Shown: positions 213 through 29,925 of the stretch, piece after piece
How positions within the stretch are numbered: the first letter of the stretch is position 1
Layout of the letters: every line of letters starts with the position of its first letter
Assembly (NCBI GenBank): GCA_016223005.1
Contig: JACRPW010000011.1
Location: 1 to 41,369, forward strand
Direction: 5' to 3'
Length of the DNA: 41,369 nucleotides
Origin: Deltaproteobacteria bacterium
GTDB lineage: Bacteria; Desulfobacterota; GWC2-55-46; UBA9637; GWC2-42-11
The notes under the pieces: generated by a model
What the model saw: only the letters and a program-made list of their open reading frames with translations
Told to the model about the DNA's origin: nothing
Databases searched by the model: none
Program-made: the position numbers and the translations under genes

Positions 213-240
213 ATTCAAAAATCAAATATCAAAAGTCAAA
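213..240. repeat. 7-nt tandem array, 4 units (NNTCAAA)
   Basis: Four consecutive 7-nt units, ATTCAAA, AATCAAA, TATCAAA and AGTCAAA, lie between the fabZ stop and the lpxA start. The array ends about 16 nt before the lpxA ATG, just ahead of its AAGGAAG ribosome site. It belongs to the heptamer-array series seen through this window. Confidence 0.7.
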
Positions 241-256
241 ATTAAGGAAGTAAAGA

Positions 257-1096
257 ATGAAGGACAAAAAAAGTATAAAGATACATCCAACTGCCATTAT
301 ACACCCAGATGCAGAGATAGGAGATAATGTTGAAATAGGCGCATACTCAATTGTCGGCGGAAATGTAAAGATTGGCAGCAATGTCAGGATATGTCCCCAT
401 GTTGTTATTGAAGGGTGGACAGATATTGGGACTAACTGTAAAATCTTTCAATTTACCTCCATAGGTGCACCGCCACAGGACCTGAAATTCGGCGGCGAAA
501 GGTCAGAGGTCATAATAGGTGAGAATAATACTATCAGGGAATTTGTTACAATAAACAGGGCAACTTTGCACGGCGGCGGAAAGACAGTTATAGGCAATAA
601 TAATCTTCTCATGGCATATGTCCATGTAGCACATGATTGCAAAATCGGAAACAGTAACATCCTTGCTAACGCAGCAACCCTTGCCGGACATATTGAGGTC
701 TTTGACCATGCTATTATAGGCGGGCTTGTTGCAATACATCAATTTGTGAGGATAGGCTGTTATTCAATTATTGGCGGTGCATCAGCAGTAACACATGACA
801 TACCTCCGTATGTCATGGCAGTTGGCAATCGCGCAAAACTTTATGGGCTAAATAAGATAGGACTTAGACGGCATGGTTTTCCCCGTGAAGAGATAACAAA
901 TCTTAAAAAGGCATATGACATAATCTTTAGAAACGGATTGGGACTTAAAGATGCCCTGGAAAAGGTTGGTAAAGATATCAAGAATTCTGTGCATATAAAA
1001 AACCTGATAGAATTTATTAAAAATTCAAAGAGGGGTATAACAAGGGCAAAACCTACTAGCAGAGAAGAAGGGGCAGATGAAATTGAAGAAGATTAA
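257..1096 (+). CDS. lpxA: acyl-ACP--UDP-N-acetylglucosamine O-acyltransferase LpxA
   Basis: This cytoplasmic enzyme starts lipid A synthesis by moving a 3-hydroxyacyl chain from ACP to UDP-GlcNAc (or UDP-GlcNAc3N). The 279 residues begin with repeated hexapeptides of a left-handed beta helix (IHPTA, IHPDAEIG, VEIGAYSIVGG, running to about residue 190) and end with an alpha-helical tail. The catalytic-His region is AYVHVAHDC at about residues 120-128, with H126 matching the family base. The length is slightly above the usual ~260. AAGGAAG precedes the ATG. The stop overlaps the next gene by 20 nt, which implies translational coupling. The following Gfo/Idh gene raises the possibility that the substrate is a 3-amino sugar nucleotide; that is inference. 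Confidence 0.96.
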   Translation: MKDKKSIKIHPTAIIHPDAEIGDNVEIGAYSIVGGNVKIGSNVRICPHVVIEGWTDIGTNCKIFQFTSIGAPPQDLKFGGERSEVIIGENNTIREFVTINRATLHGGGKTVIGNNNLLMAYVHVAHDCKIGNSNILANAATLAGHIEVFDHAIIGGLVAIHQFVRIGCYSIIGGASAVTHDIPPYVMAVGNRAKLYGLNKIGLRRHGFPREEITNLKKAYDIIFRNGLGLKDALEKVGKDIKNSVHIKNLIEFIKNSKRGITRAKPTSREEGADEIEED

Positions 1097-2042
1097 GGTT
1101 GGTGTTGTTGGCGTTGGTTATCTGGGCAGGTTCCATGCAGAGAAGTATTCAAACATTCCAGAGGCTGAACTGGTTGGTGTTGTTGATATTGATAAGGGGG
1201 CAGCGGACGAAACAGCATCAAGGTTTAATACAAAGGCATACTATGATTACAGAGACCTCATTGGCAGGGTAGACGCGGTAAGTATTGTTGTTCCTACACA
1301 TCTGCACCATGCTATCGCAAAGGCATTTATCAATAACAAGATAGACTGCCTTATAGAAAAACCTATTACAGCCACAATTGAAGAGGCAGATGACCTTATA
1401 GAGTTATCAGATAAAAATGGGGTTCTGCTGCAGGTGGGACACCTTGAGAGATTTAATCCTGCGATACTTGCACTGGGCAGCAATGTTGACGACCCCATGT
1501 TTATTGAGTCTGACCGTCTTGCACCATTTAATATAAGAGGGACTGAGGTGTGCGTTGTGCTGGACTTAATGATACACGATATTGATATTATATTAAATTT
1601 CGTAAATGCCGATGTTAAAAAGATAGATGCAGTTGGAGTGCCTGTTATATCAAGAGAGGTTGATATTGCAAATGCAAGGATTGAGTTTGTAAACGGCTGT
1701 GTTGCAAATGTTACTGCCAGCAGGATTTCAAGGGAAAAACTTCGCAAGATGCGTATATTTCAGCACGATTCATACATATCTATTGATTATATTCAGCCAA
1801 AGATAACTGTCTTGAAAAAGAATATGAAAGAAGGTTCAATCATTCCTGAAATATTTGAAGACAATATAACAATGGAAAAGGGGGATGCCCTTATGTCTGA
1901 GATAAAGGCATTTGTGAATTCAGTTGCATCAAGAAAATCGCCGATTGTTACAGGCAGAGACGGCAAAAGGGCATTAGAAGTAGCAATTAAGATAAAGGAA
2001 TGTTTGAATAAAACAGGCAAAAAGACAGGCTATGGGCTATAG
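1077..2042 (+). CDS. Gfo/Idh/MocA oxidoreductase, GnnA-like (UDP-GlcNAc 3-dehydrogenase candidate)
   Basis: This is a 321-residue NAD(P)-dependent oxidoreductase. The Rossmann motif GVVGVGYLG sits at residues 9-17, the family EKP at 94-96, and QVGHLERFNPA follows. It lies between lpxA and lpxB and overlaps lpxA by 20 nt. In Acidithiobacillus and Leptospira the related GnnA oxidises UDP-GlcNAc at C3, after which GnnB transaminates it so that lipid A carries amide-linked chains. No GnnB aminotransferase is present here, so the activity is inferred from family and position only. The last codons (GYGL and the stop) are made of heptamer repeat sequence, so the C-terminal end may be a late addition. 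Other sugar dehydrogenase activities are possible. Confidence 0.8.
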   Translation: MKLKKIKVGVVGVGYLGRFHAEKYSNIPEAELVGVVDIDKGAADETASRFNTKAYYDYRDLIGRVDAVSIVVPTHLHHAIAKAFINNKIDCLIEKPITATIEEADDLIELSDKNGVLLQVGHLERFNPAILALGSNVDDPMFIESDRLAPFNIRGTEVCVVLDLMIHDIDIILNFVNADVKKIDAVGVPVISREVDIANARIEFVNGCVANVTASRISREKLRKMRIFQHDSYISIDYIQPKITVLKKNMKEGSIIPEIFEDNITMEKGDALMSEIKAFVNSVASRKSPIVTGRDGKRALEVAIKIKECLNKTGKKTGYGL

Positions 2043-2081
2043 GCAATAAAAGCAGGCAATAGGCAATAGGCTATGGGCTAT
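2027..2081. repeat. 7-nt tandem array (AGGCTAT/AGGCAAT), 3 + 4 units
   Basis: AGGCTAT, GGGCTAT and AGGCAAT occupy 2027-2047. After a 6-nt gap, AGGCAAT x2, AGGCTAT and GGGCTAT occupy 2054-2081. The stop codon of the GnnA-like gene (2040-2042) lies in the first block. It forms the left arm of a hairpin with 2095-2122. Confidence 0.75.
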
Positions 2082-2094
2082 GGGTTTTTATCCT

Positions 2095-2122
2095 ATTGCC
2101 TCTAGCCCATAACCCATAGCCT
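2095..2122. repeat. 7-nt tandem array, 4 units, inverted partner of 2054-2081
   Basis: The units are ATTGCCT, CTAGCCC, ATAACCC and ATAGCCT. Read on the other strand they repeat the AGGCTAT/GGGCTAT theme of the facing array, so the two can pair across a 13-nt T-rich loop. This occupies most of the gap before lpxB. Confidence 0.75.
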
Positions 2123-2138
2123 GTATCTATAACCTATT

Positions 2139-3269
2139 ATGAAAAAACTTCTAATAGTTGCAGGTGAGGCATCAGGCGACCTGCACGGTGCAAATCTTAT
2201 AAAATCCATCCTTGAGATAGACCCAAAAGTCAGACTTTACGGCATAGGCGGGAGCCGAATGCAGTCCCTTGGTTTCAATGCTGTTTTTGACACAAGAGAA
2301 CTTGCTGTTGTTGGTATAGTTGAAGTATTAAGCAAACTTCATACAATCAAAAAGGCTTTTAACAAATTAAAGGCGCTCCTTGAAGATGACAGTCCTGACA
2401 TTGTGATATTGATAGATTATCCTGAATTTAATCTGCGTTTTGCAAAGGAGGTCAAGAAGAAAGGCATTCCTGTAATATACTATATAAGCCCTCAGGTCTG
2501 GGCATGGAGAAAAGGAAGGGTAAAAAAGATTGCAAGACTTGTTGACAAGATGCTGGTCATCTTTCCATTTGAAGTAGATATTTATAAGGATGCAGGCATG
2601 GATGTTGAGTATGTGGGGCATCCGCTTGTGGATGAGGTAAGGTGTAAGTTTTCAAGAAATGAAGCGAGGAAACATCTTGATATTCAAGAAAACAAAACTA
2701 TTATAGCCGTTGCCCCGGGAAGCAGGATGAGTGAAATCAGAAATCTATCTCAGGCAATAATGGGTGCAGTAAGGATGATAAAAAGAGAGATTCCTGATGC
2801 AGAGTTTATACTTCCACTTGCCAATACCCTTGACCGTAGGGTTGTTGAATCCTTCTTTCATGCAGCGGATATCCATATTAAAATATTTGAAAACAGTATG
2901 CATGAGGTAGTGCTTGCAGCAGATGCAGCAATTGTTGCATCAGGCACTGCAACCCTTGAAACAGCCATTCTGGAGACACCCATGGTTGTTATTTATAAGG
3001 TCTCTCCGCTTACCTATTGGTTCGGAAGGATACTTATAAATCTTGATTGCGTCAGTCTGGTAAATATAGTTGCAAACAAGAAGGTTGTGCCTGAACTGAT
3101 ACAATGGAATGCAAACCCTGATAATATTGCACATGAAATATTAAAGATATTGAAGGATAAAGAGATTTATAATAATATACTTGCAGGTCTTCAGACAGTG
3201 AAGGAAAGACTTGGCAGAGGCGGGGCATCAAAAAGGGCGGCAGAAATCATTTATGAAACTCTATTTTAA
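2139..3269 (+). CDS. lpxB: lipid-A-disaccharide synthase LpxB
   Basis: LpxB is a GT19 glycosyltransferase that joins 2,3-diacyl-GlcN-1-P to UDP-2,3-diacyl-GlcN at the inner membrane. The protein has 376 residues, normal for the family. The signature AGEASGDLHGA is at residues 8-18, VIYYISPQVWAWRKGR in the middle, and SGTATLETAILETPMVV in the nucleotide-binding C-terminal half. It is separated from the GnnA-like gene by paired heptamer arrays, and its 3' end overlaps msbA by 17 nt. No LpxH or LpxI pyrophosphatase, needed for the preceding step, is seen in the window. Confidence 0.96.
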   Translation: MKKLLIVAGEASGDLHGANLIKSILEIDPKVRLYGIGGSRMQSLGFNAVFDTRELAVVGIVEVLSKLHTIKKAFNKLKALLEDDSPDIVILIDYPEFNLRFAKEVKKKGIPVIYYISPQVWAWRKGRVKKIARLVDKMLVIFPFEVDIYKDAGMDVEYVGHPLVDEVRCKFSRNEARKHLDIQENKTIIAVAPGSRMSEIRNLSQAIMGAVRMIKREIPDAEFILPLANTLDRRVVESFFHAADIHIKIFENSMHEVVLAADAAIVASGTATLETAILETPMVVIYKVSPLTYWFGRILINLDCVSLVNIVANKKVVPELIQWNANPDNIAHEILKILKDKEIYNNILAGLQTVKERLGRGGASKRAAEIIYETLF

Positions 3270-5058
3270 AATTCTAAAATTTGTTGTGCCGCACTGGTTT
3301 TATCTTGTATGTGCAGTATTATGTATGGCAGTCCTTGCATTTTCAACAGGCGCAATGGCATATCTCATTGGTCCTGCGATGAAATTCCTCTTCACAAATG
3401 AGAGTAATGATATTCTAAAATTTGTGCCATCGGGATTTATAAATTTTGACAAGGCAAGGAAGATATATGTAATCCCTTTACTTATTATAGCACTTGCGAT
3501 TGTAAAGGGTTTTTCATTTTTCGGTCAGGCATATCTGATGGGTTATATCGGACAACGTGTTGTTCTGGATATAAGGGAAAAACTCTACAGGCAAATATTA
3601 TTACTTCCTGTTCCATTTTTTACAAAAACCCATACAGGCACACTCATATCAAGGGTTACAAATGATGTAAATCAAATACAAAGTACAGCCGCAGAATCCT
3701 TTGCTGCACTGATACGTTCAACCTTGTCTATAATAGCCCTTACATCAGTTATCATAATACAGGATTTAAAACTTGCTATGGTGGCGCTGATTGCATTCCC
3801 ATTTGCTATCTATCCCTTAATAAGATTCAGTAAAAAGATACGTAAGGTGAGCGCGCAAGGGAATGTTACTATGGGGACAATTACATCTCTGCTTCAGGAG
3901 GCAATATCAGGAATAAGGATAGTAAAGGCATTCTGTATGGAATTATATGAGGAACTCAAGTTTAAGAAAGAAAGTGAAAGATTAAATAAACTGCAGATGA
4001 AGGGGATTCTGGTAAGATCAATATCTCCTCCTGTAATGGAGATGTTTGGTGTAATCAGTTTTGCCTTAACAATCCTATATGCCTCTTCCCGCATAGAAAA
4101 TGGAGATTTAAGACCCGAAGGGTTCATATCATTTTTTGCTGCTGTACTTATGCTCTTTCAACCTATAAAGGCACTTAGCGGCGTAAACTTAAACATACAA
4201 AAGGGGCTTGCTGCTGCCTCAAGGGTGTTTGAAATATTTGATATTAAGGAAGAGGTAATAGACAAATCTGATGCCATGGTATTGAAAGATACAATAAAGG
4301 AAGTTGAGTTCAGGGATGTATCCTTCAGATATGGTGAAAACTGGGTTCTTAGGGGAATCAGCACGAGGGTCAAAAGCGGTGAGGTTATAGCGATTGTAGG
4401 CACAAGCGGAGGCGGCAAGACAACCCTTGTAAATCTGATACCAAGGTTTTATGATGTGCTGGATGGTTCAATTATGATAGATGGGGTTGATATAAGGGAT
4501 ATTAAACTCAAGTCACTGCGGGAACATATAGCCATCGTTTCCCAGCAGGTAATCCTGTTTAATGATACAGTAAAGAGAAATATTGCATACGGAGATTTTG
4601 CTAAAGCAGATGAAGAGATAATCGCATCTGCAAAGGCTGCCAATGCCCATAATTTTATAGAAAAACTCCAGCATGGTTATGACACCTTCATTGGAGAGGG
4701 CGGTATAAGGCTTTCTGGTGGAGAAAGGCAGAGGCTTTCCATTGCAAGGGCAATACTAAAGAATGCACCTATCCTGATACTTGATGAGGCAACATCATCC
4801 CTTGATACCGAGTCAGAGATAGAGGTTCAAAAAGGGCTTAATAACCTTATGTATGGCAGAACAACACTTGTGATAGCACACAGACTCTCTACAATAAGGA
4901 ATGCTGACAGGATAATAGTTCTGGCAGGTGGCACAATAAAGGAGCATGGCAGACACGACGAACTGCTGAAATTAAACGGTGAATACTCCCGTATCTATAA
5001 TATGCAGTTTCATGACACAAGGGAGAATCTCTTAAAAGATGAAAGGGCATGGGTATAA
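3253..5058 (+). CDS. msbA: lipid A export ABC transporter MsbA-type, permease/ATP-binding
   Basis: This is a 601-residue half-transporter. The N-terminal part carries six hydrophobic segments (about residues 10-310). The nucleotide-binding domain has Walker A GTSGGGKTT near residue 383, signature LSGGERQR near 487 and Walker B ILILDEATSSLD. MsbA flips lipid A-core across the inner membrane, and the position inside the lpx operon supports that role over a drug exporter. The start chosen is ATG 3253 (MKLYFK); the frame extends upstream to 3211, but that stretch is hydrophilic and would overlap lpxB by 59 nt. Confidence 0.92.
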   Translation: MKLYFKILKFVVPHWFYLVCAVLCMAVLAFSTGAMAYLIGPAMKFLFTNESNDILKFVPSGFINFDKARKIYVIPLLIIALAIVKGFSFFGQAYLMGYIGQRVVLDIREKLYRQILLLPVPFFTKTHTGTLISRVTNDVNQIQSTAAESFAALIRSTLSIIALTSVIIIQDLKLAMVALIAFPFAIYPLIRFSKKIRKVSAQGNVTMGTITSLLQEAISGIRIVKAFCMELYEELKFKKESERLNKLQMKGILVRSISPPVMEMFGVISFALTILYASSRIENGDLRPEGFISFFAAVLMLFQPIKALSGVNLNIQKGLAAASRVFEIFDIKEEVIDKSDAMVLKDTIKEVEFRDVSFRYGENWVLRGISTRVKSGEVIAIVGTSGGGKTTLVNLIPRFYDVLDGSIMIDGVDIRDIKLKSLREHIAIVSQQVILFNDTVKRNIAYGDFAKADEEIIASAKAANAHNFIEKLQHGYDTFIGEGGIRLSGGERQRLSIARAILKNAPILILDEATSSLDTESEIEVQKGLNNLMYGRTTLVIAHRLSTIRNADRIIVLAGGTIKEHGRHDELLKLNGEYSRIYNMQFHDTRENLLKDERAWV

Positions 5059-5759: not shown

Positions 5760-5803
5760 GGTTTTAGCATTTCTTGCATTACCTCATTTCTCGCATATTA
5801 CCG

Positions 5804-5831
5804 CTTACTGCTTACTGTTCACTGTTTACTG
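5804..5831. repeat. 7-nt tandem array, 4 units (CTTACTG)
   Basis: CTTACTG x2, TTCACTG and TTTACTG end four bases before the waaA start codon. The complement CAGTAA(GC) occurs at the DUF374 stop (about 5716), giving an inverted arrangement around the whole intergenic gap. Confidence 0.75.
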
Positions 5832-5835: not shown

Positions 5836-7131
<1,296 letters not shown>

Positions 7132-11051: not shown

Positions 11052-12003
11052 AATTTTTTGCCTTTACCATTTTAACTGCTGTTTCTATTGCACATATCAT
11101 GCTGTCGGGTTTTGCAATCCCTTTCCATGCAATATCATATCCTGTTCCATGGTCAACAGATGTCCTTATAATAGGCAGTCCCAGAGTTATATTCACACCA
11201 TCTTCAAAATGCAGAAGTTTTAATGGTATGAGTCCCTGGTCATGATACATGCATACAACTGCGTCAAATTCATCTTTTTGAACTGCACGAAAAAAGATTG
11301 TGTCAGGGGGAAGGGGAGGGGAGACATCTATACCTAATGCGGATGCCTTTTTTACAGCAGGCATGATTATACTCTTTTCTTCTATGCCAAAGAGCCCTCC
11401 TTCACCTGCATGCGGGTTTAATGCACAAACACCTATCCGCGGTCTTTTAATCCCGAAATATTGTTTTAAGGATTCATTTGTGATGCAGATTGTCTTTAAA
11501 ATGTCTTTTGTTTTTAATAAATTTGGAACATCTCTGATTGCCTCATGTATCGTAACAAGGGATACCTTTAGTCTTTTACCTGCAAGCATCATTACATAAT
11601 CTTTTGTATTGGTAAGATGGGCAAGATACTCTGTATGTCCATGAAAAGTGTAGCCTGCCCTGTTTATTGCCTCTTTACTTATTGGTGCTGTTACTACAGC
11701 ATCTATACCGCCGTCCAAAACCATCTTGACAGATTGTTCAATATAGTTCATTACTGCCTTCCCGCAGGCATTGTCAGGACTGCCGGGTTTTAGTTTTCTG
11801 GGATTTAGCGAGGAGAGGTTTATTATATTGGGTTTTGAGTTTTGGATTTTGAGTTTTAAGTTAATGTATTTCAGGACTGCCTCATCACCAAATATCACAG
11901 GCTTGCAGATTTTTTTAATCTTCTGATTTGAGACTGCCTTTAAGACTATCTCTGGTCCGACCCCTGCAGGGTCACCCATTGTAATACCGATGATTGGTTT
12001 CAT
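11038..12003 (-). CDS. pdxA: 4-hydroxythreonine-4-phosphate dehydrogenase PdxA
   Basis: PdxA oxidises 4-phosphohydroxy-threonine in the DXP-dependent route to pyridoxal phosphate. The protein has 321 residues. GITMGDPAGVGPE is at residues 5-17, GHTEYLA and CMYHDQGLIPLK carry metal-binding histidines, and VDHGTGYDIAWKG closes the active site. Near residues 48-60 a heptamer array (11833-11860) encodes LKIQNSKPNI in a surface-loop region. It lies downstream of the SurA-like gene, echoing the surA-pdxA order of enterobacteria. Confidence 0.95.
   Translation of the reverse strand: MKPIIGITMGDPAGVGPEIVLKAVSNQKIKKICKPVIFGDEAVLKYINLKLKIQNSKPNIINLSSLNPRKLKPGSPDNACGKAVMNYIEQSVKMVLDGGIDAVVTAPISKEAINRAGYTFHGHTEYLAHLTNTKDYVMMLAGKRLKVSLVTIHEAIRDVPNLLKTKDILKTICITNESLKQYFGIKRPRIGVCALNPHAGEGGLFGIEEKSIIMPAVKKASALGIDVSPPLPPDTIFFRAVQKDEFDAVVCMYHDQGLIPLKLLHFEDGVNITLGLPIIRTSVDHGTGYDIAWKGIAKPDSMICAIETAVKMVKAKNYASP
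11833..11860. repeat. 7-nt tandem array, 4 units (TTTTGAG) inside pdxA
   Basis: TTTTGAG, TTTTGGA, TTTTGAG and TTTTAAG are read on the minus strand as LKIQNSK. The same unit recurs inside bioA at 29581-29608. Confidence 0.8.
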
Positions 12004-12011
12004 AGAAAGAC

Positions 12012-12071
12012 AGGTTTTAGGTTCTAGGTTTCAGGTTTCAGGTTTTTTTGACACCTGACACCTGACACCTG
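12012..12071. repeat. paired, inverted 7-nt arrays (AGGTTTC x5 / ACACCTG x3)
   Basis: Between the SurA-like gene and pdxA, AGGTTTT, AGGTTCT, AGGTTTC x2 and AGGTTTT (12012-12046) face ACACCTG x3 (12051-12071). The arms are complementary apart from one base per unit and could fold across a short loop. The SurA-like stop codon follows the right arm by 4 nt. Confidence 0.75.
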
Positions 12072-13043: not shown

Positions 13044-13999
13044 AGTAGTTCCTCCCTTATATCTATCGTTGCATTATTTTTTAACTCTTTTATCCATTTC
13101 TGAAAAGATTCATTAGCCTTTGTCTTTCTTAGTTTTTCAGCAATATCGTTTTTAACTTCATGCAGTAACAAATTTTTAGCCTTTGTCCTTTCATCCACAC
13201 GGAATATATTGTATCCATAAGGTGTTTTGGTGATGCTGCTTACCTTTTTTATTGGCATTGAAAACAGGACATCCTCAAATTCTTTAGGGAGTTTACCACG
13301 GCTGTAATATATGGACTGTCCTGCATTTGGCATGTTTCTGTCTATTGACACCTCTTTTGCCACCCTTGTAAAGTCTTCACCTTTCTTTAATCTTTTCAAG
13401 ACATTATTTGCCTCTTCTTCTGTGGCTAATACGATTATCCGTGCCTTAACCCTTTCAGGTATTGTAATCTCATCTTTATGCTCCATGTAGTATGCTGTTA
13501 TCTCATTATCTTCCACCGTAACCCTTGAAATAACAGCGGCATCAATCATCTTTCTTGTTAAGAGTTTCCTCCTTATCTCCTCTTTCCATTTTTCCATACT
13601 CCCGTATCTGCTTACTATTGTATCTGTAAAGGCATTGCCCTGATAATCTTTTTTTATGCCTTCTATTTCGCCTGTTACCTCTCTTTCTGATACCTTTATG
13701 CCCTTTTTCTTCGCCTCATCAATGATAAGTTCTTCCTCAATCAGTTGGGAGAGGATGTTCTTTTTTAATTCTTTCTGTTCTTCTTTGGACAGGGATGCCA
13801 TATCAGAATCAGGTATCAATCTTTTCAGAATTCCCTGAAACTCCTGAAGGGTTATCTCGGTATCATTTATCTCTGCAACTACCTTTTTAAACACAATATC
13901 TTTAGGCTCATATTTCTGGCAGTTTGTTAATGCTAACAAAAGACAGATAAATGATACCACACGGTACAGATATTGCTTGTAAAGTGATTTTTGTGTCAT
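13040..13999 (-). CDS. PpiC/parvulin-type peptidyl-prolyl isomerase lipoprotein
   Basis: The start at ATG 13999 (MTQKSLYK) is preceded by AGAGAAG; the frame opens earlier at 14050, but that stretch is not signal-like. The 319 residues have a lipoprotein signal ending LLALTNC, a SurA/PrsA-like N-terminal domain (KVVAEINDTEITLQEF) and a parvulin domain from about residue 180 (MPNAGQSIYYSRGKLPKEF). It is likely a periplasmic, membrane-anchored folding factor working with the SurA-like protein encoded right after it. Confidence 0.87.
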   Translation of the reverse strand: MTQKSLYKQYLYRVVSFICLLLALTNCQKYEPKDIVFKKVVAEINDTEITLQEFQGILKRLIPDSDMASLSKEEQKELKKNILSQLIEEELIIDEAKKKGIKVSEREVTGEIEGIKKDYQGNAFTDTIVSRYGSMEKWKEEIRRKLLTRKMIDAAVISRVTVEDNEITAYYMEHKDEITIPERVKARIIVLATEEEANNVLKRLKKGEDFTRVAKEVSIDRNMPNAGQSIYYSRGKLPKEFEDVLFSMPIKKVSSITKTPYGYNIFRVDERTKAKNLLLHEVKNDIAEKLRKTKANESFQKWIKELKNNATIDIREELL

Positions 14000-14018
14000 C
14001 TTCTCTATTTTAACCAAA

Positions 14019-17000
14019 TTATATAAGTTCTTGCAATAGCCATCTTGCATCTTCTAAAATACCCTTCTTGACATCAATAGACATTGCAATCTTGTCGGGT
14101 GTTATCTTGATTTCCCCTGGGTATCTCTTGAGCAGATTTAAAATCTGTTCCGGGTGTATCTTTGTATCTTTAGTAAAGGTAATATATAGTTTATCACCCC
14201 TCTGGGACATATCTATTGCCTTCAGGGTCTTTAGCATAAGTTTTAATTCCATAATGCTTATTAGATTCTGGCTTGTGTCGGGCAGTTTTCCGAATCTGTC
14301 AATGAGTTCTATCTTTAAATCCCCTATCTCTTCTTTGCTTGTGCAGGAGGCAAGCCTTTTATATATATTCAACCTCTGTCGCATATCATGTATATAATTA
14401 TCTGGAATAAATGCTGCTATCTTTAAGTTTATTTCAGGGTCTATACAAATCCCTTTTCTTTCCCCTTTCATTTCCATTATAGTTTCTTCAAGCATTTGTG
14501 TGTAAAGTTCAAAACCAACATCAGCAATGCGGCCTGACTGGGCATGTCCAAGCAGTTCTCCAGCCCCCCTGATTTCCATATCATGTGAGGCAATCTTAAA
14601 ACCCGAACCAAGTTCAGATAATTCCTGAATGATGCGAAGCCTTTTTTCAGCATCTCTGGTCAGAACCTTTTCAGGAGAGACAAGCAGATATGCGTATGCC
14701 CTGTGCCTGCTTCTGCCTACTCGTCCCCTTAACTGATAAAGTTGTGCAAGCCCGAATTTATCAGCCCTGTTTATTATAATGGTGTTTGCAGATGGAATAT
14801 CAAGCCCTGATTCTATTATTGCAGTTGATAAAAGAATATCAAACTCTTTATTCACAAAACCCATCATAACACTTTCAAGTTTGTGCCTTTCCATCTGTCC
14901 GTGTGCAACTTGAATCCTTGCCTCAGGCAGTATTTTTATAAGATATTCCAGCATGCTTCCTATACTTTCAACCCTGTTATGCACGAAAAATACCTGTCCG
15001 TGCCTTGCCATCTCTCTTATAACTGCGTTGCGGATAGTTTCATCATCAAACATTGTAACAGTAGTCTTGATGGCAAGTCTGTCTTCAGGCGGTGTGTTTA
15101 TAATACTTAAATCCCTTATGCCTGATAATGACAGATGAAGGGTTCTTGGTATAGGTGTTGCGGTAAGGGTCAGTATGTCAATCTCTTTTCTGAGCTGTTT
15201 TAACCTTTCTTTATGTGCAACGCCAAACCACTGCTCTTCATCAATCACAACAAGTCCGAGTTCCTTGAAAGACACATCTTTCTGTAAAAGTCTGTGTGTC
15301 CCAATAATTATATCCACCTCACCCTTTGCAAGCCTTTGCAAGACAGTCTTTTGTTCTTTAGGGTTTTTAAATCTGCTGATTACATCAATTATCACAGGAT
15401 ATTCAGAAAGTCTCTTCTTGAATGTCAGATAGTGCTGCTGGGCAAGTATGGTTGTTGGCACAAGAACAGCAACCTGTTTGTTGTCCATAGCAGCCTTAAA
15501 GGCAGCCCTCATAGCAACTTCGGTCTTACCATAACCAACATCTCCGCATATAAGCCTGTCCATTGGTTTTTCATCTTCCATATCTTTGAGGACATCTTCA
15601 ATAGCAGAGATTTGGTCAGGTGTTTCATCGTATTCAAAAGACTCTTCAAATTCAATAAACAGCCTGTCAGGTTTTGAGAATGCAAAACCTTTTGCTGTCT
15701 TTCTGATGGCATATAATTCAAGGAGTTCTTTAGCCACTGCCTCAACAGATTTTTTTACCCTTAACTTGGTTTTTTCCCATGATGTTCCGCCAAGTTTATC
15801 TATCGGCGGCATCTTACCTTCAACACCTGTGTATTTGCCGACCAGATTCAACTTTGTAACAGGCAGATAGAGTTTATCACTGCCAAGATACTCTATCAGC
15901 AGAAAATCGTTTTCAATGCCTTCAATCGTGATTCTTTTTAACCCTTGATATATGCCTATTCCGTGAAATGTATGCACAACAGGTTCGCCTATCTCCAAGT
16001 CGCTCATCTGAGTTAGGAATGTATCAATATGTCTTGTGGATGACTGCCTTTTCTTGATTCTTTCACCAAAGATTTCATCTTCTGTTATTACCGCTAGTTT
16101 TAAATCATGGATGCGAAAGCCTGTTGTAAGACTGCCTATAACTATATAGGCTGAAGGGTGAAGGCTGAAGGCGGAAGGTGGACTTATAATTGGCAGATTT
16201 AATTCATAGCCTTCCAGAAGTTCCTTCAACCTTTCTCCACCGCCTGCCGAAGGACTTATCAGAAATATATTCCAGTTATCCCCTTGCCACCCCTTTATCA
16301 TATCTACTAATGGCTTAAGTTTGCCTTCTTCTCTTGCAAATGAGACTGCCTGCCTTATATCTATATTAGATGTAGAATATAGCGCGATGGCAATGTCTTT
16401 ATCCGTGATGTCTGTAATATTAACAGCCGCTGTTTTTGCAAGTAGAGAAACAGTTTCTTCTTTGGAGAGATAGAGTTCAGAAGGATGGACAAAGAATTGC
16501 CTTTTCCCCATCGTCTTTCTTTCCATCTCCAGACACTCTTTTGTAAATCTATCCATTTCATCCAACACCCTTTGCTCATCAACAATAAAAAGAGTGGAAT
16601 CCTTTGCAATATAAGGAAAAATCGTTTCGGTCTTCTCGTAGAATAAAGGCATAAGTGATTCTATGCCTGAAAAATACACATTATTATTTATTCTTTCCAA
16701 TATGGTATCTACTGCATTCATTGTGAGTTCCAATCCATTTGCCCGTTCCTTGATTTTCTTATTAGCCGTTATCTTTGTTTCTTCATTTATAATTATCTCT
16801 CTAAAAGGGATGAGCACAATCTCGTTTATTCCTTGTTTCCCTTGCCCCTTATCTATATATGTTAAAGTCCTTTGCGTGTCAGGGTCAAAAAATCTTATGG
16901 ATTCTACTTCATTGCCAAAAAATTCCATACGCACAGGTTTTGAATATAGGGGGGTAAAGATGTCAAGGATGCCTCCTCTTATGCTGATTTCACCCATCAT

Positions 17001-21376: not shown

Positions 21377-22645
21377 CAATTCCACAACATGCACAACCTT
21401 TGTCTTTGCGCCTATTTTGTGCAGACCATCTTTGATTTGCATTATGCATCCCGGGCATGATGTTGCAGCAATTTGAGCGCCTGTGTTTTTTATATCCATT
21501 GCCTTTTTTCTGTTTATTTCCATTGAAAACTCATAATTTGTTATGTTGAAACTGCCTCCGAGTCCACAGCATTTGCAAGGATGGCTCATCTCTTTAAATC
21601 TATACCCGCTGAATTCAATCAATTCCCTTGGCTCATCTTTGATTCCCTGACCTCTGCTCAAATGACATGGATCATGGTAGGTGACAATCTGGGAGGTGGG
21701 AGGTGGGAGGTGGGAGGTAAAATATTTAACCCCTACCTCATTTGCAAGCAACTCTGTTATATCCTTTACCTTGTGGGCAAACCTTTCCACCCTTTGCTGC
21801 ATACCATCACCTTCATCTGCCAGAAGTTCTTTAAATCTCCTCTTTAGACCTTCACCGCATGTGGCACATGCGGTTGTGATATAATCAAGTTCATATCTTT
21901 CAAATGCCAGAAGATTTTTTATGGCAAGTTTCTTTGCAGTTTCAATATCTCCTGCACCAACAGCAGGCATACCGCAGCAGGCTTGGTCAAGCGGGACTAT
22001 GACAGATGCGCCTATCCTTTCCAGAACACTTAAAGATGCCTCACCGATATGGGGATAGATGTAATTTATAAGACAGCCAGCGAAGAAACCTATACAATGC
22101 TGTGATTTATCTTTTTTACTTCTGACTTCTGACTTCTGACTTCTGACTTCTAAAAAAAATTCCTTTGCCAATTGCGGCATAAGGCGGTTTTTGCCTATAA
22201 ACGGCAGCGGGAATCTCCTGTGCAGACCGCTTTCTTCAGGAACTCTTTTAAAAAACAGGTTTTGAATCTTTGATGCGAATTTAACAAAGGTGTTTCCAGC
22301 CTTTTCTGAACCAAAAAACTTTGATATTGCAGTGCGGGTAAAATCAATCTTTCCATTTTTAAATGCCTCTCCCCTTGCTGTGATAACAATTTCAGGCACA
22401 GGCACATCATTCGGACAAGATTCTCTACAAGCCCCGCAAAGCACACATTCATTTATATGTTTTATAAACCTCTCTGAAAGTCCTATTTCATTATTCAATA
22501 AAGCTTTGCAAAGCGCTGTCTTCCCCCTTGGGCTTGCCTGCTCCATCTTCACCACATCAAATGTTGGGCATACGCTCCTGCATGTCCCGCATAAGACACA
22601 GTTAGAGAGTAGAGAGTAGAGAGTTGAGAGTGAAGATAAAGACAA
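21368..22645 (-). CDS. glcF: glycolate/D-lactate oxidase iron-sulfur subunit GlcF family
   Basis: The protein has 425 residues, with two ferredoxin-type clusters, CVLCGTCRSVCP (16-27) and CVLCGACRESCP (about 67-78), then two CCG domains (CCGMPAVG, CCGLGGSF) as in GlcF and heterodisulfide-reductase-like subunits. It partners the FAD protein encoded directly upstream. TTG 22645 is the likely start, since AAGGAG in the glcD tail precedes it. The first ~15 residues (SLSSLSTLYSLLSN) are pure heptamer array. Two more arrays encode EVRSQKSEVRSKK and HLPPPTS between domains. Three arrays in one gene is the most in the window. Confidence 0.9.
   Translation of the reverse strand: MSLSSLSTLYSLLSNCVLCGTCRSVCPTFDVVKMEQASPRGKTALCKALLNNEIGLSERFIKHINECVLCGACRESCPNDVPVPEIVITARGEAFKNGKIDFTRTAISKFFGSEKAGNTFVKFASKIQNLFFKRVPEESGLHRRFPLPFIGKNRLMPQLAKEFFLEVRSQKSEVRSKKDKSQHCIGFFAGCLINYIYPHIGEASLSVLERIGASVIVPLDQACCGMPAVGAGDIETAKKLAIKNLLAFERYELDYITTACATCGEGLKRRFKELLADEGDGMQQRVERFAHKVKDITELLANEVGVKYFTSHLPPPTSQIVTYHDPCHLSRGQGIKDEPRELIEFSGYRFKEMSHPCKCCGLGGSFNITNYEFSMEINRKKAMDIKNTGAQIAATSCPGCIMQIKDGLHKIGAKTKVVHVVELLA
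21691..21718. repeat. 7-nt tandem array, 4 units (GGGAGGT) inside glcF
   Basis: Four perfect GGGAGGT units are read on the minus strand as TSHLPPPTS, just before the QIVTYHDPCHLSRG motif of the second CCG domain. Confidence 0.85.
22118..22151. repeat. 7-nt tandem array, 4-5 units (ACTTCTG) inside glcF
   Basis: ACTTCTG occurs four times, plus a partial fifth (ACTTCT). On the minus strand it encodes EVRSQKSEVRSK in the linker between the ferredoxin part and the first CCG domain. Confidence 0.85.
22604..22631. repeat. 7-nt tandem array, 4 units (AGAGAGT) forming the 5' end of glcF
   Basis: AGAGAGT x3 and TGAGAGT lie immediately after the glcF start codon and encode the serine/leucine-rich N-terminus right up to the first cluster cysteine. 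Confidence 0.85.
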
Positions 22646-25627: not shown

Positions 25628-25666
25628 GGTTAGATGCCTCCTTTCTTGCAAACTTTTTTGAATTTT

Positions 25667-25686: not shown

Positions 25687-25694
25687 CTTACTAT

Positions 25695-26236: not shown

Positions 26237-26278
26237 TTATCGCCCCATTTGCTAATCTTGAGCGGAAATATCACTACC

Positions 26279-26315
26279 TCTTCTCATCCTCATAAATCTT
26301 ATTCGCTTCTTTTGC
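26279..26315. repeat. 37-nt direct repeat, copy of the LsrF-like aldolase 3' end
   Basis: This matches 27018-27054 at 33 of 37 positions by eye. On the minus strand it can encode AKEANKIYEDEKR, nearly the same as the aldolase tail AKEANKIYEDGKK. It overlaps the last codons and stop of the PIN toxin gene. Confidence 0.8.
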
Positions 26316-26709
26316 TTCTCAAAAAATCCCAATATTGCCGCGGTGTGATTATTTTTACTTCTTCATACTGTTTTAATGCCAAGAGGTCATTATCGCCTGT
26401 GATTATAAAATCAACATTTCCCCTTAATGCCGTGCCGATTATTTTGATGTCATCTTTATCACGGCACGCTGATTTAGCAACTTGTTCAGGTTCAAACAAT
26501 TCAGCCATGTCCCGTAAATATTCTATTATATTTTTAACGGTATCATCAGGCAGATTAATTTTCTCAGTCAATTTTTCCTGAACTTCCGCCAGAATATGTT
26601 CACTTATTATAATAGTGTCTTCTGCAAGGCATACCTCAAATATCTCAGCGCATAAACCTCTGGCAGCAAAGGCAGCAATAATGACATTGGTGTCTAATAC
26701 GACCCTCAT
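26299..26709 (-). CDS. PIN-domain toxin (VapC-like, COG1569 type)
   Basis: The protein has 136 residues. It has the PIN acidic set: D6 in VVLDTNVII, the Glu in HILAEV, the aspartates of CRDKDD and those of ITGDNDLL. It is likely a metal-dependent RNase. It overlaps the ribbon-helix-helix antitoxin gene by 4 nt. The last residues (LRSKRSE) come from a stretch duplicated from the neighbouring aldolase gene. Confidence 0.88.
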   Translation of the reverse strand: MRVVLDTNVIIAAFAARGLCAEIFEVCLAEDTIIISEHILAEVQEKLTEKINLPDDTVKNIIEYLRDMAELFEPEQVAKSACRDKDDIKIIGTALRGNVDFIITGDNDLLALKQYEEVKIITPRQYWDFLRSKRSE

Positions 26710-26924
26710 GAGATGGCTTTGAAAACATCCTCATCCGTCAGCAGACCTTCTGCTTCAGCGAATGGAAGAACCTGTTTCCTCAACTGCTTGAACCTTTTAA
26801 CAGCAAGATACCTGGAAACAGCGTCCCTGATGATTTCACTTTTAGAGGTCTTTTCTTTCTTCACTACTAGTTCCAGTTCCTGCTGTAGTTTTTCGGGCAG
26901 TCTTATGGTGATTGTCTCTGTCAT
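26706..26924 (-). CDS. ribbon-helix-helix antitoxin (VapB-like)
   Basis: The protein has 72 residues. TETITIRLPEKLQQELELVV followed by KSEIIRDAVSRYLA is a MetJ/Arc ribbon-helix-helix DNA-binding domain, and the acidic tail (FAEAEGLLTDEDVFKAI) would bind the toxin. It is the first gene of the PIN pair and presumably represses its own promoter, which would lie in 26925-27006. Confidence 0.87.
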   Translation of the reverse strand: MTETITIRLPEKLQQELELVVKKEKTSKSEIIRDAVSRYLAVKRFKQLRKQVLPFAEAEGLLTDEDVFKAIS

Positions 26925-27006
26925 AATTTATACCTCACTTTTTAGGCAATCTGTAAGACATTGTAACTCCAATATGTCTATTTGTCAAAATTACCATTCC
27001 AAAAAA

Positions 27007-27795
27007 TCATTTCCCTTTCTTCCCATCTTCGTAAATCTTATTCGCCTCTTTTGCCGACGCGTTTTCATGGATGATGGCGCGGATTGCCTTAATCATCGGA
27101 ACGGGATGTGTATTTTGCCAGATGTTTCTGCCGAGGTTTACGCCGATTGCGCCTTTCCGCATTCCATCAGCGACAAATTCCAAAACCTCAAAATCAGTCT
27201 CTGTTTTTGGTCCCCCTGCTATTACAACAGGGACAGGACAAGTGCTTGTAACCTTGTCAAAATCTTTGCACCAATATGTCTTTACAACCTTTGCGCCGAG
27301 TTCTGCAGCAATTCTACAGCAGAGAGACAAATAGCGGGCATCTCTCTTTTCCAATTCCTTACCAACTGCGGTAACTGCCATGACAGGAATGCCGTATTCT
27401 TCTGCCTCATTTACAAGTGTTGACAGATTTAACAGTGTCTGACGCTCATATTCACTGCCTATAAAAATAGACAAGCCTACGGCAGAGGCATTGAGCCTTA
27501 TTGCCTCTTTTATGGATGTTGTAATGCCTTCATTTGCCAAATCTTTTCCAACAATGCTTGTGCCGCCAGACACCCTTAAAATAATCGGCACAGTATTGTC
27601 AGCAGGCACGCATGAACGCAAAACACCTCTTGTAACAAACAAGGCATCGCTGTAAGGGAGAAGCGGTTTTATGGTTTCCCCCGGTTTTTTTAATTTTTTT
27701 GTGGGACCAAGAAAATATCCGTGGTCAATCGGCATAAACAGGCATTTCCCGTTCTTAATTATCTGCGACAAACGATTTTTCATTCCCCAATCCAT
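27007..27795 (-). CDS. class I aldolase of the LsrF / DeoC-FbaB family
   Basis: The protein has 262 residues. DWGMKNRL, MPIDHGYFLGPT, TRGVLRS, KVVKTYW (Schiff-base Lys), VPVVIAGGPK and GVNLGRNIWQ follow the pattern of LsrF, the thiolase that breaks down phospho-AI-2, within the class I aldolase superfamily. No lsrACDBK genes are near, so an AI-2 role is doubtful and another ketose-phosphate or acyl-transfer reaction is possible. AAGGAGG precedes the ATG. The 3' end is duplicated beyond the PIN/RHH pair. Confidence 0.83.
   Translation of the reverse strand: MDWGMKNRLSQIIKNGKCLFMPIDHGYFLGPTKKLKKPGETIKPLLPYSDALFVTRGVLRSCVPADNTVPIILRVSGGTSIVGKDLANEGITTSIKEAIRLNASAVGLSIFIGSEYERQTLLNLSTLVNEAEEYGIPVMAVTAVGKELEKRDARYLSLCCRIAAELGAKVVKTYWCKDFDKVTSTCPVPVVIAGGPKTETDFEVLEFVADGMRKGAIGVNLGRNIWQNTHPVPMIKAIRAIIHENASAKEANKIYEDGKKGK
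27018..27054. repeat. 37-nt direct repeat within the 3' end of the LsrF-like gene
   Basis: This is the original copy of the repeat at 26279-26315. It lies in the coding frame for AKEANKIYEDGKK. The two copies bracket the RHH/PIN pair with starts 739 nt apart. Confidence 0.8.
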
Positions 27796-27853
27796 ATAAG
27801 TCCTCCTTTTATCCAGTAATTTTTTAGCAAGATACAGGATAAAGTAATTCAGG

Positions 27854-28492
27854 TCAATTGATTTTTGTTTTTATAAATGGCACTTCTCCGAGTATATCTA
27901 TGTCTGTAAACCTTCTTACTTCGGCAGGATTTGCCAATACAGTCTTTTTATTAGAGGTTGTGTTATTGAAGATTATGCCGAGTGTTTTAATGCCAGAGTC
28001 TATGGCACATCTTACAGTCAAAAGTGTATGGTTGATTGCACCCAGTTTTGATGCTGTAACAATGACAATCGGCAGTCTTAAGAGTTTTATCAGGTCAATG
28101 ATTGTCTCTTTATCATTCAGCGGCACCAACAATCCGCCTGCACCTTCAACAACCATAAAATCATGATAGGATGCAAGTTTTTTATAGCAATCTGAAATTT
28201 TAGGTAGTTTAATCCTTCTGCATGAGATCCTTGCTGCAGCAGAGGGAGACGCAGGTTCTTTAAACCTGTATGGATTTATAATATCCAGATGGTCATTCAC
28301 ACCAGCACAGTTTTTTAAAAATACTGCATCTTCTGGTATCAGCGTATCCTTCTTTTTCCTGCAGCCTGTTTCAACAGGTTTCATAACACCAACATCTACA
28401 CCATGTTTTTTAAGTGCCTTTACAATTAACCCTGCAACAAAGGTCTTACCAACCCCTGTATCTGTGCCTGTTATGAAAATGCCTTTACTCAC
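27854..28492 (-). CDS. bioD: dethiobiotin synthetase BioD
   Basis: BioD closes the ureido ring of dethiobiotin from DAPA, CO2 and ATP. The protein has 212 residues. The P-loop GTDTGVGKT is at 8-16, MKPVETGC at about 36-43 and VVEGAGGLLVPL in the middle, all diagnostic. The start overlaps the bioA stop by 4 nt. BioF and BioB are not in the window. Confidence 0.95.
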   Translation of the reverse strand: MSKGIFITGTDTGVGKTFVAGLIVKALKKHGVDVGVMKPVETGCRKKKDTLIPEDAVFLKNCAGVNDHLDIINPYRFKEPASPSAAARISCRRIKLPKISDCYKKLASYHDFMVVEGAGGLLVPLNDKETIIDLIKLLRLPIVIVTASKLGAINHTLLTVRCAIDSGIKTLGIIFNNTTSNKKTVLANPAEVRRFTDIDILGEVPFIKTKIN

Positions 28493-29925
28493 CCGTAACC
28501 CTCTTTACCCAAAAAATGCATTCGGTTTTTATTTTTCGGGTTTATGCAATCGTGAACTATAGTTACCATCTTTTTTAGTTCCGTCTTTTTTATGCAGAGC
28601 GGCGGCATCAGAACTATGGTATCACCAATGGGTCTGATTATAAGCCCGTATTCCCTTGCCCTCATGCAGATTTTATACCCTGTCCTTGCCTCCATTGGGA
28701 AAGGCTCTCTTATTTTTTTATCTTTTACAATCTCTATGCCTGCCATGAGTCCTTTTTGTCGGACATCACCAACATAGTTCTTTCCTTTTATCCCTTCCAG
28801 AAGTTCTGTAAAGTATTTTACTTTACTCTGAATCCGCGTAATGGTCTTTTCCTTTTCAAAGATTTTTAAATTTGCCAGTGCAGCAGCGCACCCAAGTTGA
28901 TTTCCTGTGTATGTATGTCCATGGAAGAATGTTTTAATATCTTTATATTTACCAAGGAATGCCTTATAAACCTTCTCTATTGTAAGTGTTGCTGCAAGAG
29001 GTAAGTATCCAGCAGTTATACCCTTTGCAAGACATAAAAAATCAGGATTTACATCCTCATGCTCACATGCAAAAAATTCTCCTGTTCTGCCAAACCCTGT
29101 TGCCACCTCATCCGCAATCAAAAGGATATTGTATCTTGTGCAGAGTTGCCTCACCTTTTTTAAGAATCCAGTTGGTGACACAATCATTCCAGCAGCGCCC
29201 TGAACAATTGGTTCAATAATGCAGCCTGCAATCTCTTTGTGATGGTTTTTCAAAATATCTTCAAACTTTTTTATGCAGGAGATATTGCATTCAGGATATG
29301 TCTTTCTGACAGGACATCTGTAGCAGTATGGATAATATGCCTTGAATGTTGGGAATAACAAAGGCTTGTATTTTTTTACAAATATATCAATCTCCCCGAC
29401 GCTCATTGAACCAAATGTGTCTCCGTGATATGCACCGCTGAAGGCAATGAATTTTGTTTTTCTGACCCCTGACCCCTGACCCCTGACCCCTGCTTGTTGC
29501 TGCCAGTATTGGAATGCCATCTTTAATGCAATCTCAACTGCTGTTGAGCCGTTATCTGAATAAAAGACCCTTGATAATAGTTTTGAGTTTTGAGTTTTGA
29601 GTTTTGAGTTTACTAATTGAACAAGTTTTTCTGCCAGAAGAATAGACGGAACATTTCCGAGTCCAAGAAGGGTTGAATGGCTGATTTTGTCTATCTGTTT
29701 TTTTATTGCATTATCTATCTCTTTTTTTCTGTGTCCATGTAGATTTACCCAGAGGGATGAGATGCCGTCAAGATACCTTTTCCCATCCATATCTATAAGA
29801 TAATTTCCTTCACCCTTTTCAATTATCAGGTTGTCTCCCTTTCCCCATTCCATCATCTGTGTAAAGGGGTGCCATACATATTTCTTGTCAAGGTCTATAA
29901 GTAGAGATGAACGTTTCTTTGCCAT
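28489..29925 (-). CDS. bioA: adenosylmethionine-8-amino-7-oxononanoate aminotransferase BioA
   Basis: BioA is a PLP enzyme making DAPA for biotin. WHPFTQMMEW, DGISSLWVNLHGH, AYHGDTFGSMSVGE, ADEVATGFGRTGE and LAKGI (PLP Lys) identify it. The start at ATG 29925 (MAKKRSS) is chosen because a consensus promoter ends only 10 nt upstream; earlier in-frame starts fall in the -10 and -35 boxes. This gives 478 residues. Two heptamer arrays add NSKLKTQNSKLL and AGVRGQGSGVRK, and the last ~15 residues (KNKNRMHFLGKEG) come from a hairpin-like stretch. Confidence 0.93.
   Translation of the reverse strand: MAKKRSSLLIDLDKKYVWHPFTQMMEWGKGDNLIIEKGEGNYLIDMDGKRYLDGISSLWVNLHGHRKKEIDNAIKKQIDKISHSTLLGLGNVPSILLAEKLVQLVNSKLKTQNSKLLSRVFYSDNGSTAVEIALKMAFQYWQQQAGVRGQGSGVRKTKFIAFSGAYHGDTFGSMSVGEIDIFVKKYKPLLFPTFKAYYPYCYRCPVRKTYPECNISCIKKFEDILKNHHKEIAGCIIEPIVQGAAGMIVSPTGFLKKVRQLCTRYNILLIADEVATGFGRTGEFFACEHEDVNPDFLCLAKGITAGYLPLAATLTIEKVYKAFLGKYKDIKTFFHGHTYTGNQLGCAAALANLKIFEKEKTITRIQSKVKYFTELLEGIKGKNYVGDVRQKGLMAGIEIVKDKKIREPFPMEARTGYKICMRAREYGLIIRPIGDTIVLMPPLCIKKTELKKMVTIVHDCINPKNKNRMHFLGKEGYG
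28508..28540. repeat. imperfect hairpin CCCAAAAAAT...ATTTTTCGGG in the bioA 3' end
   Basis: It shares the 13-mer CCCAAAAAATGCA with the palindrome at 31528-31555. It lies inside the last codons of bioA. Confidence 0.55.
29463..29490. repeat. 7-nt tandem array, 4 units (TGACCCC) inside bioA
   Basis: Four perfect TGACCCC units are read on the minus strand as GVRGQGSGVR, between YWQQQA and KTKFIAF. Confidence 0.85.
29581..29608. repeat. 7-nt tandem array, 4 units (TTTTGAG) inside bioA
   Basis: Four perfect TTTTGAG units are read on the minus strand as LKTQNSKL in a loop after KLVQLV. The unit is the same as in pdxA. Confidence 0.85.

What the first reader, a model, noticed from the sequence alone, without database searches (positions are those of the whole stretch)
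213..29608. Dispersed tandem arrays with a fixed 7-nt period, mostly four units, but a different unit each time
By direct reading I count at least fourteen arrays: 213-240, 2027-2081, 2095-2122, 5804-5831, 6725-6752, 11833-11860, 12012-12046, 12051-12071, 16149-16176, 21691-21718, 22118-22151, 22604-22631, 29463-29490 and 29581-29608. The period is always 7 and most have four units (28 nt). The unit changes: CTCTCCG, TTTTGAG, GGGAGGT, ACTTCTG, AGAGAGT, TGACCCC, CTTACTG, AGGCAAT and others. A mobile repeat would keep its sequence, and simple slippage would vary in period and copy number. A constant geometry with variable content points to a mechanism that measures length, such as a nuclease/polymerase with a 7-nt step or a protein that protects four heptamers. 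Cyanobacterial STRR repeats are a known 7-nt precedent, but with few unit types. The last 12 kb of the window has none, which is also worth explaining.
Basis: partly seen in the sequence, partly recalled or inferred. Interest (0 to 1): 0.88.

Follow-up and report, generated by a model that had tools for sequence, protein, structure and literature searches.

The report
Seven-letter DNA stutter, locally copied
Across this bacterium's genome short stretches of DNA have been repeated in steps of exactly seven letters, apparently by a copying stutter that starts on tiny matches already present, and inside genes about four copies are common because three extra copies (21 letters) keep the protein readable.

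Summary
Period-7 arrays dominate the window and the sampled genome (71 loose arrays in 355 kb, 57 in 238 kb; other periods at most 7, harmonic 14 apart). The step of seven is real: 4-6 nt matches are about equally common at spacing 6, 7 and 8, but runs of 21 or more matches number 47 at 7 and 0-1 at 6 and 8. "Four units" is no measured length here: outside genes copy number falls steadily (3:42, 4:25, 5:12); inside it peaks at 4-5, as if one resident unit gains three (+21 nt, in frame). Units differ because arrays mostly copy what lies there: one Fe-S protein loop carries seven different heptads in eight genomes, and two pairs of relatives differ by exactly 21 nt at a resident 4-6 nt match at spacing 7. 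No Pfam match to reverse transcriptase, Y-family polymerase or Ku was found in G000. Unexplained: why seven, and why some units recur at unlinked sites. The kind is known (heptameric repeats); the many-unit, in-gene form and the seed signature look new.

The parts
211..243 (.). imperfect heptad array (AAAATCA-like) just before the lpxA ORF
2027..2088 (.). imperfect heptad arrays AGGCTAT/AGGCAAT/GGGCTAT, left arm of an inverted pair, overlapping the end of the ORF 1077-2042
2095..2122. degenerate right arm of the inverted pair (ATTGCCT/ATAGCCT), before the lpxB ORF; below the thresholds
5798..5831 (.). imperfect array (TTACTGC), just before the waaA-like ORF
6725..6756 (+). perfect array CTCTCCG x4.6 inside the waaA-like ORF; some relatives carry other heptads in the same loop
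11828..11862 (.). imperfect array TTGAGTT inside pdxA
12011..12071 (.). AGGTTTC array and TGACACC array in opposite sense, filling most of the gap between two - strand ORFs
16145..16182 (-). imperfect array inside mfd; 4 of 6 ortholog loci compared carry a heptad array there, that is 3 of 4 genomes
21687..21722 (-). perfect array ACCTCCC (coding strand) in the GlpC/LdhH-like Fe-S protein; seven different units in eight genomes at this loop
22110..22153 (-). array AGAAGTC (peptide LEVRSQKSEVRS) in the same protein
22603..22636 (-). array near the start of the same protein's ORF
29462..29492 (-). array GGGGTCA (peptide GVRGQGSGVR) in bioA; orthologs of G004 and G006 differ by 21 nt here
29573..29611 (-). 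array CAAAACT (peptide NSKLKTQNSKL) in bioA; no array in 25 ortholog loci classed as plain, median 24 nt shorter

Best explanation
A mutational process with a fixed step of 7 nt makes the arrays by copying local DNA. Where a stretch of about 3-6 nt happens to recur 7 nt away, the growing strand slips back by seven, re-pairs on that match and copies the seven letters again, once or several times. Each place therefore gets its own unit. Outside genes any number of rounds survives and the arrays decay by point mutation. Inside genes only multiples of 3 rounds keep the frame, so one resident unit plus three (+21 nt, 7 residues) is the usual product, and it survives in tolerant loops; an array, once there, is itself rich in 7-spaced matches and can slip again, so the place lasts while the unit changes. 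Shown here: the 7-specificity, the copy-number peak confined to ORFs, places kept with units changed, and +21 nt differences at resident matches at two loops. Inferred: strand slippage as the physical act, the replicative polymerase as the agent (no replicative polymerase was examined), and recurrent slippage as the cause of unit change.
For: (1) In 1.2 Mb of three genomes, matches of 4-6 nt number 4857 at spacing 7, 5824 at 6 and 4342 at 8, but runs of 21 or more matches are 47 at 7, 0 at 6 and 1 at 8 (existing arrays not masked). (2) Copy number peaks only in ORFs (Fisher). (3) In-ORF arrays with three complete extra units have match runs of 22-27; 25 of 32 exceed 21 by 3-6 nt, where chance extension predicts 5-8%: the trace of a seed match. 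In the second G000 sample 5 of 7 runs of 21-27 do so (all places). (4) Fe-S protein loop: G010 GAATTGCAAATT, G006 (AATTACG)x4 at the same codons, 21 nt longer. BioA loop: G006 CAGAAGTCAGAAGC, G004 (CAGAAGT)x5, 21 nt longer. (5) Of 25 array sites in G000 ORFs with a spanning ortholog of 45% identity or more, 13 have an array at the same site in at least one ortholog; in 9 of the 13 the best unit match is 4-5 of 7, only a little above random pairs (mostly 3-4). (6) Units at the NELxI loop of G003-G006, G008 are the local codons of each genome. (7) G000 has no RVT_1, IMS (Y-family) or Ku match but has MutS; G001, array-rich, has no Y1_Tnp match.
Against: Units recur at unlinked sites more than 7-spaced seeds predict: in ORFs 75 distinct of 132 against a mean of 95 (lowest 84) for stop-free hydrophilic seeds; outside 42 of 61 against 56 (lowest 50). 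RRAGTCA-like units are 0.394 of in-ORF arrays (0.545 of the hydrophilic ones) but 0.175 of such seeds. Net length against array-free orthologs is exactly +21 at only 2 of 19 sites with run of 20 or more (the same BioA site in G000 and G003; some genes occur twice among the 19); the rest range from -78 to +30, and many of these loops also hold other insertions; BioA 29573 is +24. Among pairwise DNA indels of the order, 21 nt (10) stands above 18 (3) and 24 (4), but 27 nt has 11 and only 5 of the ten 21-nt ones lie in a period-7 run; the same indel can count in several pairs. Of seven 7-nt indels between the congeners G056 and G093 only 2 look like a copy of the adjacent heptad, though 7 is a local peak in the sizes. 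Published intergenic arrays suggest a limit near four that the frame cannot explain: GGGAATC arrays of Xanthomonas are mostly four units (PMC4692102), and TAACTGA sets fall from 19 at four to 1 at five (PMC4679880).
Confidence: 0.7

Rival explanations
1. A trans-acting, sequence-biased adder: an enzyme (possibly RNA-templated) adds heptads of a preferred type at breaks or nicks, so units are partly dictated by the enzyme and not by the site.
For: Units recur at unlinked sites and share a loose consensus, better than letter-shuffled units and than resident seeds. Single-unit dialects are published: TAACTGA in Beggiatoaceae, GGGAATC in Xanthomonas (PMC4679880, PMC4692102).
Against: G000, G001 and G003 have no RVT_1 match. 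At the NELxI loop the unit is each genome's own codons. Outside ORFs the RRAGTCA excess is weak (0.197 against 0.131), so much of the consensus may be selection on the encoded peptide.
Confidence: 0.16
2. Dispersal of ready-made arrays as tiny mobile elements or by conversion from other arrays.
For: Shared units at unlinked loci; arrays at the same loop with unrelated units; the run lengths of 28-34 nt alone would also fit a ready-made insert.
Against: Flanks of arrays with the same unit are hardly more alike than others (0.305 over 116 pairs against 0.275, 20 nt each side). Two alignable loops show exact +21 nt at a resident match, not +28 to +34. The one transposase family tested, Y1_Tnp, has no match in array-rich G001.
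Confidence: 0.08
3. A protein that protects or measures four heptamers.
For: In-ORF perfect runs cluster at 4.1-4.9 units (18 of 42). Intergenic Xanthomonas arrays are reported as mostly four units (PMC4692102).
Against: No peak at four outside ORFs here; five-unit and longer arrays exist.
Confidence: 0.04

Closest known systems
Heptameric simple sequence repeats of bacteria (Mrazek, Guo and Shah 2007; not held, known to me only through passages of PMC4692102)
   Same: 7-nt units over-represented among repeats in many bacterial genomes; polymerase slippage was proposed, tied to the DNA segment that meets the polymerase's active site.
   Different: Here arrays lie in ORFs as well as between them, units are many per genome, and a seed match and a frame effect are seen.
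Cyanobacterial STRRs (three heptanucleotides in Calothrix, as cited in PMC4692102; other details recalled)
   Same: Dispersed tandem heptads.
   Different: Few unit types reported; here 71 distinct among 128 arrays.
GGGAATC repeats of Xanthomonas (PMC4692102, section 10 and passages)
   Same: Heptads, mostly four units, 70-75 inverted pairs per genome; mostly between the same genes in a sister species but with different length and sequence.
   Different: One G-rich unit family, 89-93% intergenic; here many units, 73 of 128 wholly in ORFs.
TAACTGA repeats of Beggiatoaceae (PMC4679880, abstract and sections 8 and 15)
   Same: Short heptad arrays (2-6 copies), some in ORFs.
   Different: One unit; [quoted passage not shown]

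Membership tests
Bacterial heptameric SSR / STRR | Tandem unit of 7 nt, dispersed over the genome | tested here: met
Bacterial heptameric SSR / STRR | Few unit types per genome (recalled for STRRs; one unit family for Xanthomonas and Beggiatoaceae) | tested here: not met
   71 distinct units among 128 arrays
Bacterial heptameric SSR / STRR | Mostly intergenic | tested here: not met
   G000: 73 in ORF, 41 outside, 14 partial; per base still denser outside, since about 90% of the sequence is in the ORFs called
Slippage-made repeat | Unit copied from the resident sequence next to a short match at the same spacing | tested here: met
   two alignable loops and the 3-6 nt residual in 25 of 32; other sites could not be read this way
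Slippage-made repeat | Copy number changes between close strains | tested here: inconclusive
   one genome per species is held; between the congeners G056 and G093 one 14-nt difference lies in a heptad array, most other aligned arrays keep their length
Miniature mobile element / MITE / REP | Copies share sequence beyond the array, or target duplications | tested here: not met
   flank identity 0.305 against 0.275; target duplications not examined
Reverse-transcriptase or telomerase-like adder | An RVT_1 enzyme in the genome | tested here: not met
   no RVT_1 match in G000, G001, G003; a diverged enzyme outside the Pfam model is not excluded
G-quadruplex repeat (Xanthomonas type) | A run of three or more G in each unit | tested here: not met
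   3 of the 30 commonest unit types listed contain GGG or CCC

The most novel reading that the evidence does not exclude
A dedicated or altered enzyme, patchily distributed among bacteria, copies DNA in 7-nt steps with a preference for RRAGTCA-like units and keeps rewriting short loops of housekeeping proteins; genomes that carry it show arrays, relatives that lack it show none.
Probability: 0.13. Interest if true: 0.85.

Novelty: new variant of a known kind. Interest (0 to 1): 0.52.

Why it matters
Why bacteria favour repeats of seven has been open since heptamers were noticed. Here is a lineage where the process is frequent enough to dissect: the seed match, the local copying and the frame filter can each be read off. 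It also shows a source of 7-residue insertions in loops of ordinary enzymes, which an annotator could mistake for domains, tags or mobile elements, and the patchy presence of the arrays offers a way to look for the gene behind them.

Tried and rejected
Measured four-unit length: not supported here. Unusual empty tail of the window: rejected. One ancestral unit: a consensus appears (TCARRRG, RRAGTCA; other sampled genomes give other consensuses), stronger than letter shuffles; part of it fits selection on the peptide and the stop-free strand, part does not; left open. Dispersal with flanks: rejected. Reverse transcriptase, Y-family polymerase, MutS loss, Y1 transposase, Ku: none fits as a requirement; G004 has no MutS match and G000 has one, both array-rich. 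A correlation of gene families with arrays over the 198 genomes was not computed. Net insertion length against orthologs over all sites: inconclusive. Congener comparison G056/G093: indel sizes 6:1, 7:7, 8:2, 14:3, but only 2 of the 7 look like copies of a neighbour; 12 of 52 arrays of the G056/G093/G156 sample (reciprocal pairs counted twice) could be aligned in another species, mostly the same array with small changes. In one search the residual count over all runs of 10 or more is biased by its threshold; only the three-unit class is used. In one search, orthologs under 45% identity were left out, orthologs neither plain nor array-bearing were not counted, and some genes occur twice among its 50 sites, so recounts G000 alone. 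In one search, arrays whose unit matched the search seed at 6 or more of 7 were dropped before the survey count. In one search the control (the same pattern read backwards, itself of period 7) also matched, for example 29 places in G000 against 89, and single matches may be chance. Literature: eight searches, seen as listings, gave no report of many-unit in-gene heptads with kept places and changed units; most subscription papers are not held.
Full report
What is there. The window is contig C11 of an unnamed 1.82-Mb bacterial genome, G000; I did not identify the organism. Its genes look like ordinary housekeeping genes: lpxA, lpxB, msbA-like, waaA-like, pdxA, mfd, a GlpC/LdhH-like Fe-S protein, bioA, and in the tail an aldehyde dehydrogenase, a methionyl-tRNA synthetase type protein, a DNA polymerase III delta-type subunit and a sensor kinase. 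All 14 named places hold heptad arrays; Tandem Repeats Finder finds 13 with period 7. Perfect runs with 14 or more matches occur only at period 7, apart from the harmonic 14.

Genome-wide. In 355 kb of G000 the loose count is 71 at period 7 and at most 7 at any other period from 4 to 30 except 14; a second sample of 238 kb repeats it, 57 against at most 5 over periods 4-20. G001 (53) and G003 (42) look alike; a more distant genus has 10 (G056), 8 (G093) and 34 (G156). A pattern for one kind of heptad array matched 73 of 198 genomes of the phylum and is patchy: G012, G015, G017 and G018 of the same class have none; the backward control, also of period 7, matches often as well, and single matches may be chance. 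In those 80 loci, after dropping arrays with units close to the seed, 104 period-7 arrays remain against 8 at period 6, 16 at period 8 and at most 18 at any other period from 4 to 20 except 14 (71); 47 of the 80 loci have one.

Why four. With simple ORF calls (longest ORFs of at least 90 codons, about 90% of the sequence), rounded copy numbers for G000, G001 and G003 are 3:26, 4:48, 5:59, 6:13, 7:2, 10:1 inside ORFs (149 arrays) and 3:42, 4:25, 5:12, 6:2, 7:1, 10:1 outside (83 arrays); p about 7e-7 for 3 against 4-5 copies. Outside genes there is no peak. Inside, one resident unit plus three is +21 nt, the smallest in-frame gain in steps of seven. A coding filter alone would favour steps of 6 or 9; that seven wins even inside genes says the bias lies in the mutation (inference).

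Why seven, and the seed. Matches of 4-6 nt number 5824, 4857 and 4342 at spacing 6, 7 and 8, but runs of 21 or more matches number 47 at spacing 7, 1 at 8, 1 at 11, 3 at 14 and 0 at 4-6, 9, 10, 12, 13 and 15. In-ORF arrays with three complete extra units have match runs of 22-27; 25 of 32 exceed 21 by 3-6 nt, where chance extension gives 5-8%. This is the trace expected if a 3-6 nt match at spacing 7 was there first. A ready-made insert of 28-34 nt would give the same run lengths, so the orthologs matter.

Orthologs. At the loop between LVNEL and VTYHDPCH of the Fe-S protein the coding strands read ACCTCCC (G000), CCGGTCT (G001), ATTGCAA (G003), GGATTTC followed by ATCTCAA (G005), AATTACG followed by ATCCGAA (G006), AGAATTC (G004 and G008) and CAACTCC (G010); 11 of 13 loci could be read between the anchors, one per genome; of the other three, G007 is only array-like, G002 has another insertion and G011 is plain; G012 and the fragment of G009 could not be read, and G012 is plain in the alignment. 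G006 and G010 align with a gap of exactly 21 nt: G010 has GAATTGCAAATT, with AATT repeated at spacing 7; G006 has AATTACG four times. The resident codons N-E-L-x-I supply the match, and each genome's own codons supply the unit. At the BioA loop G006 has CAGAAGTCAGAAGC (CAGAAG at spacing 7) and G004 has CAGAAGT five times, again 21 nt longer; loops of the more distant orthologs are about 24-33 nt against 48 in G000, G003, G004 and G005. The direction of change is not proven in the first pair; in BioA the short form has the outgroup length. Over 25 G000 in-ORF array sites with a spanning ortholog, 13 have an array at the same site in at least one ortholog; in 4 of the 13 some ortholog unit matches at 6-7 of 7, in 9 the best is 4-5, a little above random pairs. 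Places last, units change.

Limits of this reading. The net length difference from array-free orthologs is +21 at 2 of 19 sites with run of 20 or more, both the same BioA site; the rest range from -78 to +30. In DNA alignments within the order, 21-nt indels (10) stand above 18 (3) and 24 (4), but 27-nt ones number 11 and only 5 of the ten lie in a period-7 run. Between G056 and G093 7-nt indels peak, yet 2 of 7 look like copies of a neighbour. Units recur at unlinked sites more than seeds predict, in and out of ORFs; the loose consensus (RRAGTCA) is strong in ORFs and weak outside. Flanks are not shared, so copying of whole elements is unlikely, but a sequence preference of the process, or conversion between arrays, remains open. 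Inverted neighbouring arrays match each other better than random arrays in G000 (mean 5.0 against 3.5 of 7, 9 pairs), G001 (4.6 against 3.5, 9 pairs) and G003 (4.3 against 3.6, 3 pairs) but not in G156 (3.7 against 3.7, 7 pairs); the model does not explain that.

Agents tested. G000 has no match to RVT_1, IMS/Y-family polymerase or Ku, and has MutS; G001 has no Y1_Tnp match. G000, G001 and G003 are 100% complete by the tool's figures, but drafts. So retro-elements, DinB, end joining and REP-type transposases seem not to be required. The replicative machinery remains, by exclusion only.

Known work. Heptamer excess in many bacteria and a polymerase-contact hypothesis are published (Mrazek et al. 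2007, seen only as cited in PMC4692102, passages). Huang and Mrazek report a weak excess of three or more heptamers in some phyla (median 7n3 class: Planctomycetes 2.00, Chloroflexi and Deferribacteres 1.00, Bacteroidetes 0.75, Verrucomicrobia 0.50; PMC4060949, section 9, part 1). Xanthomonas GGGAATC arrays, mostly intergenic, are mostly four units and often in inverted pairs (PMC4692102, section 10). Beggiatoaceae TAACTGA sets number 68, 40, 19, 1 and 1 for 2 to 6 units in the paper's Table 3 (PMC4679880, abstract and sections 8 and 15). Both last points hint at a limit near four between genes that my frame argument does not cover; this report's own counts outside genes show none. I found no report of many-unit arrays in ORFs with kept places and changed units in the listings, within a library that lacks most subscription papers.

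Verdict. Real, widespread, of a known kind, in an unusually informative form. The step of seven is the true puzzle; four inside genes is a consequence of the genetic code; the variety of units is mostly local copying.

Noticed in passing
window 2027-2122 and 12011-12071; L018 13906-13983; L009 19159-19236: Arrays between or near genes often come as inverted pairs whose arms carry similar but not identical units, each arm fairly uniform in itself; Xanthomonas repeats do the same (PMC4692102).
   Followed up: partly
L146, L148, L158 (loops of the Fe-S protein in G007 and G006 and of WaaA in G002): A short palindromic piece (CCTGC...GCAGG) sits inside or beside heptad arrays in three relatives, as if it targets them.
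   Followed up: no
L109 about 13870-14050 and similar loci of G093, G156, G128: A dispersed element of roughly 180 bp recurs in this genus; one copy has a heptad hairpin inside where several other copies have a short plain stretch, and a G093 copy has a different insert at the same point.
   Followed up: partly
L149, L152, L147, L155: The same protein loops also hold longer insertions encoding recurrent peptides (EIASALPRNDI, GHPTKGWVGQ) that look like other small repeats read in frame.
   Followed up: no
L037 about 2417-2480: The BioA ortholog of G001 has a degenerate heptad array next to a run of N, with stops in the read-through; probably an assembly gap at the array.
   Followed up: no
L010 3660-3688, L017 7267-7289, L027 9816-9837: The three perfect period-8 arrays of the first sample have units close to the heptads (GAGTTAAG, TAACTCCA, GGAGTTAG), as if the step sometimes misses by one.
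   Followed up: no
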